64,000 nt of DNA from Paenibacillus pabuli (GTDB taxonomy: Bacteria > Bacillota > Bacilli > Paenibacillales > Paenibacillaceae), in assembly GCF_039831995.1 (NCBI RefSeq), contig NZ_JBDOIO010000003.1:1178001-1242000 (forward strand). Direction: 5' to 3'. The translations under genes were made by a program, and so were the position numbers. Below the pieces are notes generated by a model. It searched no databases, was not told where the DNA came from, and worked only from the letters and a program-made list of their open reading frames with translations. This document shows positions 32,749-34,689 of the stretch, one piece after another (the stretch's first letter is position 1; the number at the start of each line of letters is the position of its first letter).

Positions 32749-32858
32749 TGAGTCTCCTTCATTACGTCCATATATTATTAGATGTATCTTGTTTTATCAC
32801 GTAACGAATAAGGATACCATTAAAAAGGCGATCTGTATATTATCTTTTAATCCCAATG

Positions 32859-33173
32859 TCAGCTCACCAGTTTTAACCCAACCGCGGATCCCAGCACCAT
32901 GGCAATAAACAAAATCCGCAATGCGTTTCGGGATTCTCCATAGAAAATCATGCCAAGAATCGCTCCTCCGGAAGCACCTATTCCTGTCCAAACAGCATAA
33001 GCCGTCCCCATGGGCAGCGTTTTCATGGCCAGAGACAGCAGCCAGAAGCTCAACCCAAAACCTGCAACTAATAGCAGAATAGATATCCAATTACGGTCCT
33101 TGTTCCATTTATTAATCATCAATACACCCAGCATCTCGAATAGGCCTGCCATAATAAGAAATACCCAATTCAT
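32859..33173 (-). CDS. ykkD: SMR-family guanidinium exporter subunit YkkD
   Basis: A 104-residue four-helix small multidrug resistance protein. The essential membrane Glu is in [10 protein letters not shown] (residue about 13), and [14 protein letters not shown] is the SMR helix-3 signature. It closely resembles B. subtilis YkkD from memory. The ATG lies inside the stop of ykkC (ATGA), so the two are translationally coupled and probably form an antiparallel heterodimer. The guanidine-I riboswitch upstream of ykkC makes guanidinium export the likely function. The longer frame to 33500 is an artefact of reading into ykkC. Confidence 0.9.
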
Positions 33174-33511
33174 GAATGATGCGCCTCCTTCGTTTTCTGC
33201 TTGCTTACCATTTTCAGTCCGATTACACCGAGCAGTAACACACCAATGAGTATCATTTTCCCAGCCTGGACAGCAGCACCGAATAACAGGATCTCTGCCA
33301 GCACCGTGCCAGCCGTTCCCAATCCGACAAATACCGCATATACCGTTCCGACATCGAGTGTACGGGAAGCCGCAATCATCAAGGAAAAGCTGACGGCAAT
33401 GGCGATCACCGTTGCTCCCCATTCCAACAGACCACTCGCATGCTTTAAGCCAATCACCCAACCCACCTCGAAAAGGGCTGCAATAATAACAGACAACCAT
33501 GTTTTGTTCAT
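33170..33511 (-). CDS. ykkC: SMR-family guanidinium exporter subunit YkkC
   Basis: A 113-residue four-helix SMR protein. The membrane Glu is in [16 protein letters not shown], and helix 3 has [20 protein letters not shown], a good match to B. subtilis YkkC. The true start is the ATG at 33511 with AAGGAG 10 bases upstream; the longer frame to 33649 runs into the riboswitch. The mRNA leader is a guanidine-I riboswitch, so expression is switched on by guanidinium, the presumed substrate. It overlaps ykkD by 4 bases. Residues after 105 ([10 protein letters not shown]) are cytosolic. Confidence 0.92.
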
Positions 33512-33579
33512 TTTTGACCTACTCCTTTTTGGTTCACATTTCATACAACAACGATTAGTATGTGTTTTAGAGAGCAAAT

Positions 33580-33712
33580 AAAAAAAACCCAGGAAACAAA
33601 CTGCATTCAAGCAGTTTATCTCCCAGGCTTTTATCCCTCCGTGGCACAACCATCAGGTTATGAGCTTTCTCTCGGACCAGACCGATCTAATATCGCGGAA
33701 CCCTAGAAAGCA
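33580..33712 (-). promoter_or_regulatory. Guanidine-I (ykkC-type) riboswitch with terminator
   Basis: On the minus strand the conserved ykkC elements appear in order: CUAGGGUUCCG (33696-33706), GGUCCGAGAGAAAG (33665-33678), and ACGGAGGGAUAAAAGCC (33625-33642) running into UGGGAGA. The expression platform is a 17-bp hairpin (33588-33604 with 33611-33627), fully paired with four G-U pairs, followed by T8. Its 5' arm shares the GCCUGGGAGA bases with the aptamer, so guanidine binding and termination exclude each other: a transcriptional on-switch for ykkCD. Confidence 0.92.
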
Positions 33713-33768
33713 TGTCGTATGATTTTATGTTTCCTATTATACACACTTCTCCTCTGGCGGCAAGCCCT

Positions 33769-34401
33769 TTATGATTTAATGATCATCCCCATTAATCCGA
33801 CGAAGGTAGCCGCTTGATAGGGTGAGATGACGCAGCCATTCAAATCTTCCATGTTCAAAGCCAAAGAGTCAAATTGGCAATTGCTAAGATCCAATCCTTT
33901 CAATTTTGTCCCTGTCATGAAAGCCTGATCGATATTGCAGTTGTCGAGTACCATTTTTTGCAATGCCAGATAGGCAAAGTCAGCACTGATTAATGAACAT
34001 TCAGTTAAAGAGACGTGTTTAAGGTGGGCAAACCTGAAATTGGAGTAGTCTCCCACACTTTGAGTTATTTGTACGTTTTGCATTCGGCTGTTAGAAAAAT
34101 CGGTGCCAACAAATTTGCAGTTTATCCATGATGCCCGGTGCATGATTGCACTTGAGAAATTGACGTTGGAAAAATCACAATGCTCAAAAACAACATCCAT
34201 AAATTCAAATTGTTCCAGCGAGGAATCCGAGATAATCACATTTCTAAAAATGACATTCTCAAAGGATGCTTTGGTTGCTTCCTGGTTATCAAGTGAGCTA
34301 TTTTCAATGAGTAGATTCCGGTATTCTGCTTTGGACTCCAATACCTGAGTGGTTTCTATGGTCATCAATTGTTCCTGAATTTTCGGGCTATCTATTTTCA
34401 T
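33769..34401 (-). CDS. Pentapeptide-repeat protein
   Basis: About 210 residues. From residue 35 nearly the whole protein is built of degenerate A(D/N)LxX/F-type pentapeptides (FENVIFRNVIISDSSLEQF; FEHCDFSNVNFSSAIMHRAS; CKFVGTDFSNSRM; ADFAYLALQKMVLDNCNID), giving about 30 repeats, enough for a right-handed quadrilateral beta-helix. Relatives include Qnr/MfpA-like gyrase protectors and many proteins of unknown role. The start at 34401 follows GGGGAAG by 5 bases; the longest frame (to 34506) has an unlikely N-terminus. It stands alone. No function is proposed. Confidence 0.8.
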   Translation of the reverse strand: MKIDSPKIQEQLMTIETTQVLESKAEYRNLLIENSSLDNQEATKASFENVIFRNVIISDSSLEQFEFMDVVFEHCDFSNVNFSSAIMHRASWINCKFVGTDFSNSRMQNVQITQSVGDYSNFRFAHLKHVSLTECSLISADFAYLALQKMVLDNCNIDQAFMTGTKLKGLDLSNCQFDSLALNMEDLNGCVISPYQAATFVGLMGMIIKS

Positions 34402-34689
34402 GTTTCTTCCCCGCTTCTTTATAAGCTGCGATTCGCAATCGACTGGTATCCATAAAACCATTGTCCATATGCATAAGTTAAGGCCGAACCTTTTACTCCA
34501 CGGCATCGATTATGGTTTCCTGCTCCTCCCATGTTACACCTTTGAAGAAATATCAGCAAAACTGTTTATCCACTTTTAATTCCCGGTTTTGCGGAGCAAG
34601 CTGATCGAACTGTTAAGCCATCGTGACATGGAACCTGTTCCGTTCCTGCAGATGGGCATATTCGCCAATGGTATTACAGTGCCAAGAAT

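What the first reader, a model, noticed from the sequence alone, without database searches (positions are those of the whole stretch)
33580..33712. Guanidine-I (ykkC) riboswitch with readable switching mechanism controls a YkkC/YkkD exporter pair
All conserved ykkC aptamer blocks are visible in order on the minus strand, and the terminator 5' arm reuses the last aptamer bases, so the on-switch logic can be read directly. Downstream, two SMR genes with ATGA overlap encode the heterodimeric exporter. Known: guanidine-I riboswitches bind guanidinium and control guanidinium exporters. Inferred: this unit gives guanidinium resistance in this organism.
Basis: partly seen in the sequence, partly recalled or inferred. 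Interest (0 to 1): 0.7.

Follow-up and report, generated by a model that had tools for sequence, protein, structure and literature searches.

The report
Guanidine riboswitch controlling a paired exporter
A soil bacterium carries a textbook RNA switch that senses guanidine and turns on a two-part guanidine pump; the switch is ordinary, but the two halves of the pump divide two key amino acids between them in every relative examined, which is a small testable puzzle.

Summary
A full-length guanidine-I (ykkC) aptamer lies at 33717-33618, minus strand (RF00442, 82.6 bits, cut-off 63). It is followed by a 21-pair terminator whose 5' arm takes its first 14 bases from the aptamer. Two SMR genes follow with an ATGA overlap. 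The on-switch reading is the standard one. 77 of 80 named ykkC loci hold the same aptamer. The genome has one further copy, before a guanidine-degradation-type operon. The riboswitch is a new copy of a well-known unit.

The exporter is more interesting. In 155 of 155 distinct Gdx-type pairs fetched from Bacillota, the first protein has Trp16 but Phe62, the second Trp62 but not Trp16 (Gly in 152). The 10 fetched singletons with Trp16 all keep both. At a 95% threshold, the only other fixed difference between the subunits is Lys/Arg at position 86. In the homodimer Gdx-Clo, W62F eliminates and W16G weakens guanidinium transport (in print). The pair therefore seems to work with an incomplete stack in each subunit. 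The pattern traces to one change at each position, so the pairs are not independent. Its functional meaning is inferred.

The parts
33736..33763 (-). sigma-70-like promoter TTGCCG-16-TATAAT, 18 bases upstream of the aptamer
   Evidence: 10 of 12 matches; 4 promoter-like sites in the scanned stretch against 2.3 expected, so a weak call taken alone
33618..33717 (-). guanidine-I (ykkC subtype 1) riboswitch aptamer; P1 33711-33705 with 33670-33664, P2 33662-33656 with 33651-33645
   Evidence: RF00442 82.6 bits; helices from the fold
33584..33631 (-). intrinsic terminator hairpin, 21 pairs, loop 33610-33605; 14 bases of its 5' arm (33631-33618) belong to the aptamer
33580..33587 (-). run of 8 T (U tract) of the terminator
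33522..33527 (-). Shine-Dalgarno-like AAGGAG, 10 bases before the ykkC start codon
   Evidence: read from sequence
33170..33511 (-). ykkC-like SMR gene, 113 aa; Trp16, Phe62 (Gdx-Clo numbering); charge bias +5
   Evidence: PF00893 E 2.4e-18; Gdx-Clo 6wk5 E 6.4e-16
32859..33173 (-). ykkD-like SMR gene, 104 aa, ATGA overlap with ykkC; Gly16, Trp62; charge bias -3
   Evidence: PF00893 E 2.3e-26; Gdx-Clo 6wk5 E 2.5e-22

Best explanation
A guanidine-I riboswitch works as a transcriptional on-switch for a ykkCD operon. Without guanidinium, the aptamer's 3' end (AAAGCCUGGGAGAU) is captured as the 5' arm of a long terminator and transcription stops before ykkC (inferred from sequence and folding). Bound guanidinium stabilises the aptamer with its P3 element, which needs the same bases. 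The terminator then cannot form, and RNA polymerase reads into ykkC and ykkD. The two proteins form an antiparallel heterodimer that exports guanidinium against protons (inferred from family, charge bias and the B. subtilis knock-out in print).
For: RF00442 over full model length, 82.6 bits. Terminator z -9.0, 0 of 200 shuffles as stable; the whole leader z -5.0, 0 of 200. Aptamer and terminator claim the same 14 bases. RF00442 present in 77 of 80 named ykkC loci. In 78 of 78 leaders (window plus 77) the predicted fold pairs the aptamer's 3' end with downstream sequence, median energy z -6.7 against shuffled downstream sequence. Both proteins are SMR, and the best solved relative of each is Gdx-Clo, a guanidinium exporter (6WK5 named as Gdx-Clo in PMC9574504). 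Opposite charge bias in 146 of 155 Gdx-type pairs, the same sign in none. A second guanidine-I riboswitch of the genome stands before UAAP1, UAAP2, a urea-carboxylase-family enzyme and allophanate hydrolase.
Against: No binding, termination or transport measurement exists for this copy. The aptamer alone is no more stable than shuffles (z 0.39); nearest-neighbour folding does not model ligand or tertiary contacts, so this is weak evidence either way. In one search the number of bridging pairs is often reached by shuffles (1 of 40 for the window, up to 36 of 40 for L074), and the energy z of some leaders is weak (L074 -1.1, L073 -2.4). Both proteins score below the SugE equivalog cut-off (59.8 and 81.5 against 126 bits). 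The charge bias uses helix limits that I set by hand from Gdx-Clo numbering.
Confidence: 0.93

Rival explanations
1. The aptamer is a ykkC subtype 2 variant that senses another ligand (ppGpp, PRPP, nucleoside diphosphates or the 2d orphan ligand) rather than guanidine.
For: The subtypes share nearly the same consensus and fold (PMC6031431 and PMC7266159, passages).
Against: The hit is to the guanidine-I model over its full length, and no other riboswitch family is listed up to E 10; whether the library holds a separate subtype-2 model was not checked. The downstream genes are SMR exporters, a guanidine-type context. The second copy in the genome stands before guanidine-degradation-type genes.
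Confidence: 0.03
2. The pair is a general multidrug (Qac-type) exporter and the riboswitch only responds to guanidine as a proxy.
For: The nearest NCBIfam model is named a quaternary ammonium exporter. YkkD carries Gly16 as Qac proteins do.
Against: The tree separates the Qac-like set from pairs plus Gdx singletons with support 0.96. Qac-like proteins in the sample carry Ile or Val at position 10 and mostly Thr17 and Tyr39; the window pair carries Ala/Gly10, Val17 and Ile/Phe39. YkkC matches Gdx-Clo but no EmrE chain in the solved structures; YkkD matches Gdx-Clo far better than EmrE (2.5e-22 against 2e-6).
Confidence: 0.1
3. The terminator is an ordinary terminator of the upstream pentapeptide-repeat gene, and the overlap with the aptamer is fortuitous.
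For: It lies downstream of that gene on the same strand.
Against: A promoter-like site lies between them. A hairpin using the aptamer's 3' end is predicted in 77 related leaders and in the genome's own second copy, where no pentapeptide gene is listed within the fetched stretch.
Confidence: 0.01

Closest known systems
Bacillus subtilis ykkCD with its guanidine-I riboswitch
   Same: Aptamer class, transcriptional on-switch by terminator, paired SMR genes (class behaviour as described in PMC12186494 and PMC12335538, passages).
   Different: A different genus; no mechanistic difference found. The B. subtilis sequences were not fetched.
Gdx-Clo (PDB 6wk5), homodimeric guanidinium exporter
   Same: SMR family and conserved Glu13, Ser42, Tyr59.
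   Different: Gdx-Clo is one protein with both Trp16 and Trp62. Here each subunit has only one of the two.
Guanidine-I riboswitch before guanidine carboxylase operons
   Same: Same aptamer class; found in this same genome at G000:C3:975594-975700, 96 bits.
   Different: It precedes degradation-type genes rather than exporter genes.

Membership tests
Guanidine-I riboswitch (RF00442) | scores above the curated cut-off over the full model | tested here: met
   82.6 bits against 63, positions 1-107
Guanidine-I riboswitch (RF00442) | conserved adenosine (A46 of the solved structure) that separates subtype 1 from subtypes 2a and 2b (PMC6031431, passages) | tested here: inconclusive
   The conserved blocks match the guanidine-I consensus, but the paper's numbering could not be mapped onto the window with certainty; the structure paper asked for is not held
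Guanidine-I riboswitch (RF00442) | expression platform: terminator exclusive with the aptamer | tested here: met
   predicted folds
Guanidine-I riboswitch (RF00442) | binds guanidinium and changes termination | not testable with these tools
   needs in-line probing and a transcription assay
YkkC/YkkD paired guanidinium exporter (SMR, Gdx type) | two adjacent SMR genes | tested here: met
   PF00893 in both, ATGA overlap
YkkC/YkkD paired guanidinium exporter (SMR, Gdx type) | opposite Arg/Lys bias of the two subunits | tested here: met
   +5 and -3 (hand-set helix limits)
YkkC/YkkD paired guanidinium exporter (SMR, Gdx type) | central Glu13, Ser42, Tyr59 in both subunits | tested here: met
Homodimeric Gdx (Gdx-Clo type) | Trp16 and Trp62 in the same chain (W16 called universally conserved in Gdx proteins in PMC9000954, passage) | tested here: not met
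   YkkC has W16/F62, YkkD has G16/W62; so the pair is not filed as Gdx-Clo type
SugE equivalog NF008512 | 126-bit cut-off | tested here: not met
   59.8 and 81.5 bits
YkkC/YkkD paired guanidinium exporter (SMR, Gdx type) | guanidinium/proton antiport | not testable with these tools
   needs reconstitution

The most novel reading that the evidence does not exclude
In paired guanidinium exporters of the YkkC/YkkD kind, the hydrogen-bond stack that holds the central glutamate is divided between the subunits: one keeps only Trp16, the other only Trp62. Because the heterodimer sits in the membrane in one fixed orientation, the inward-facing and outward-facing sites would then be chemically unequal, unlike in the homodimer, where the two states are equivalent. 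The pair would thus be a built-in asymmetric exchanger, with one facing state binding guanidinium more tightly. Only the residue pattern is shown; the transport consequence is inferred.
Probability: 0.35. Interest if true: 0.55.

Novelty: new member of a known kind. Interest (0 to 1): 0.28.

Why it matters
The riboswitch adds one more clean copy of a known sensor. Together with the second copy in the genome it suggests that one signal turns on both export and degradation of guanidine, which raises the question of whether the two switches have different thresholds. The divided tryptophans matter more: they make it directly testable whether an SMR exporter needs two equal sites or one complete set shared across the dimer.

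Tried and rejected
Rejected: ykkC subtype 2, Qac-type exporter, chance terminator (see rivals). A reading in which the Trp division arose many times was tested and rejected: parsimony on the tree gives one change at position 62 and one at position 16, so the 155 pairs are not independent. The tree has the first genes as a group (support 0.90), the second genes as a group except one (0.81; the exception is the Phe16 protein of L135/L157), the Gdx singletons as a group (0.84), and first genes plus singletons together (0.70). If that last grouping holds, Gly16 of the second protein may be retained from a Qac-like ancestor rather than lost; only Phe62 is then a clear change. The support values that one search printed after re-rooting (0.47 for the second genes) are replaced by those.

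One search covered the wrong reading frame of ykkC and its empty result is void; one search repeats it correctly. A first count by text pattern missed the second gene in 5 loci; 3 of these were misses of the pattern and one search uses an HMM instead. The protein search listed 120 close relatives of YkkD, no context, and was not used. The aspartate/asparagine test between guanidine and urea carboxylases was looked up but not made. The plasmid search (60 of 878 records listed) led me to fetch 7 records. One is a Bacillota pair with the same division (L243). Six are singletons: L240, L242 and L244 with Trp16 and Trp62, L241 with both, read by eye from the translation because its alignment failed, and two Aminobacter proteins (L238, L239) with both Trp but Asp13 and Phe42, which may be misaligned or another type. 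Which membrane face would have the better site could not be worked out, as no coordinates were at hand.

Paper searches on the pair listed no title about the divided tryptophans, and the passages shown of PMC7695847, PMC9000954, PMC9574504 and PMC10829512 around the search terms do not mention it. PMC2716321 prints residue consensus plots for YkkC/YvdS and YkkD/YvdR as a figure that I could not see, so the residues may be in print. Only open-licence papers are held, and listings were capped.

Selection effects and dropped rows: loci L004-L083 were fetched by patterns of YkkC that include GTVYAVFV, so they prove nothing about Phe62 and are a fair sample for the partner only; 78 of 80 held a counted pair, 77 distinct; L020 and L044 did not (L044's second gene is truncated). 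L168-L237 were fetched with YkkD (30 by the tool, 40 that I picked down the capped match list; 152 of 200 genomes had matches) and are a fair sample for the first protein only; 70 of 70 held a pair. The Pfam sample is free of both but small: of 68 matches listed I examined 60 and left 8 unfetched, and the weak matches of L141-L147 did not pass my HMM limits (E 1e-6, 75 model positions). It gave 16 distinct pairs, 14 of Gdx type and 2 of Qac type. Of 25 singleton records, 23 were counted after removal of duplicates and of records within 350 bases of the end of a stretch.

Full report
What is there. The window probably lies in a Paenibacillus genome (inferred: its YkkC is 98% identical to that of P. 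illinoisensis). On the minus strand, a pentapeptide-repeat gene (33769-34506) is followed by a promoter-like site (33763-33736). Then come a guanidine-I aptamer (33717-33618, RF00442, 82.6 bits), a terminator with a run of 8 T (33631-33580), a ribosome-binding site, and two overlapping SMR genes (33511-33170 and 33173-32859). A DEAD-box RNA helicase gene (32748-31402) follows.

How the switch works. The terminator stem has 21 pairs, 14 of them using bases of the aptamer. Folding the leader without ligand gives P1 and P2 plus the terminator, with P3 lost. Binding of guanidinium would hold the 3' bases in the aptamer and free the polymerase. This is the published class behaviour (PMC12186494, passages). 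In the window and 77 related leaders the predicted fold pairs the aptamer's 3' end with downstream sequence, with median energy z -6.7 against shuffled downstream sequence. The number of bridging pairs alone is a weak test, since shuffles often reach it, and two leaders have weak energies (L074 z -1.1, L073 z -2.4). Binding and termination are not shown here.

Context. RF00442 is found in 77 of 80 named loci fetched with YkkC. In 76 of them the aptamer lies 47-445 bases before ykkC; in L020 it lies 2239 bases away. The three loci without it are L069, L077 and L078; a repeat scan also found none. In the genus, 59 of 75 genomes have at least one match (stricter filters). This genome has two. The other one stands 70 bases before genes for UAAP1, UAAP2, a urea-carboxylase-family enzyme and allophanate hydrolase. 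Carboxylase, deaminase and allophanate hydrolase are the described guanidine-degradation set (PMC12186494, passages); that UAAP1 and UAAP2 are the carboxyguanidine deaminase is recalled. It too has a predicted terminator overlapping the aptamer. An APC-family permease gene diverges next to it; a role as guanidine importer is speculation. The genome also has a second Gdx-type SMR pair at G000:C5:268471-269084, with no Rfam match in the locus scanned (L114).

The exporter. Both proteins keep Glu13, Ser42 and Tyr59 of Gdx-Clo, and Gdx-Clo is the best solved relative of each. They differ at the two tryptophans that complete its hydrogen-bond stack: YkkC has Trp16 and Phe62, YkkD has Gly16 and Trp62. 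Counted over the distinct Gdx-type pairs fetched, the pattern has no exception: first protein Trp16/Phe62 in 155 of 155; second protein Trp62 in 155 of 155 with Gly16 in 152 and Ala, Cys or Phe in one each. By sample, before overlaps are removed: 77 distinct pairs from the YkkC-fetched loci, 14 from the Pfam phylum sample, 70 from the YkkD-fetched class sample. In the Pfam sample, 10 of the singletons examined have Trp16 and all 10 have Trp62; 10 further singletons and 2 further pairs are Qac-like with Gly16 and Trp62. Over the 103 Gdx-Clo positions, only 16, 62 and 86 (Lys against Arg) are at least 95% fixed in both subunits to different residues.

Why that is odd. In Gdx-Clo, W62F eliminates guanidinium transport and W16G reduces it (PMC7695847, passages; W62F and S42A also in PMC9000954, passages, which calls W16 universally conserved in Gdx proteins). 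These same residues are the natural state of one subunit each here. Yet loss of ykkCD makes B. subtilis more sensitive to guanidine (PMC12335538, passages; that its proteins carry the same residues was recalled, not tested). One set of tryptophans shared across the dimer may therefore suffice. Since opposite charge bias should fix the orientation of each subunit (146 of 155 pairs of opposite sign, none of the same sign), the two facing states would be unequal. That last step is inference.

Limits. The pattern is one inherited event (one parsimony change at each position), so 155 pairs are not 155 independent observations. The tree places first genes with the Gdx singletons (support 0.70), so Gly16 in the second gene may be ancestral. 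All pairs are from Bacillota. No experiment was possible. The riboswitch finding is confirmed and ordinary; the exporter pattern is the part worth a follow-up, and it may already be implicit in published consensus plots.

Noticed in passing
L003:6741-13701 (G000:C3:968740-975700): Second guanidine-I riboswitch of the genome (96 bits) with its own overlapping terminator, before a guanidine-degradation-type operon; export and degradation would share one signal.
   Followed up: partly
L003:13940-15295: APC-family permease gene diverging from the degradation operon; possible guanidine importer, untested.
   Followed up: no
G000:C5:268471-269084 (L114, L162): Second Gdx-type SMR pair in the genome with the same Trp division and no Rfam match in the locus scanned (L114).
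   Followed up: partly
window 32749-32858: No terminator-like site was listed between ykkD and the DEAD-box helicase gene, so read-through into the helicase is possible; a helicase match lies downstream in 13 of 80 fetched loci.
   Followed up: partly
L069, L077: Two Exiguobacterium ykkCD loci without a guanidine-I aptamer at the gathering cut-off.
   Followed up: partly
L044: Second ykkCD copy of a Paenibacillus macerans strain with a truncated ykkD behind a scoring riboswitch and an open ykkC.
   Followed up: no
L020: Riboswitch and ykkC are 2239 bases apart, with a ykkD-like protein elsewhere in the locus, as if the unit had been rearranged.
   Followed up: no
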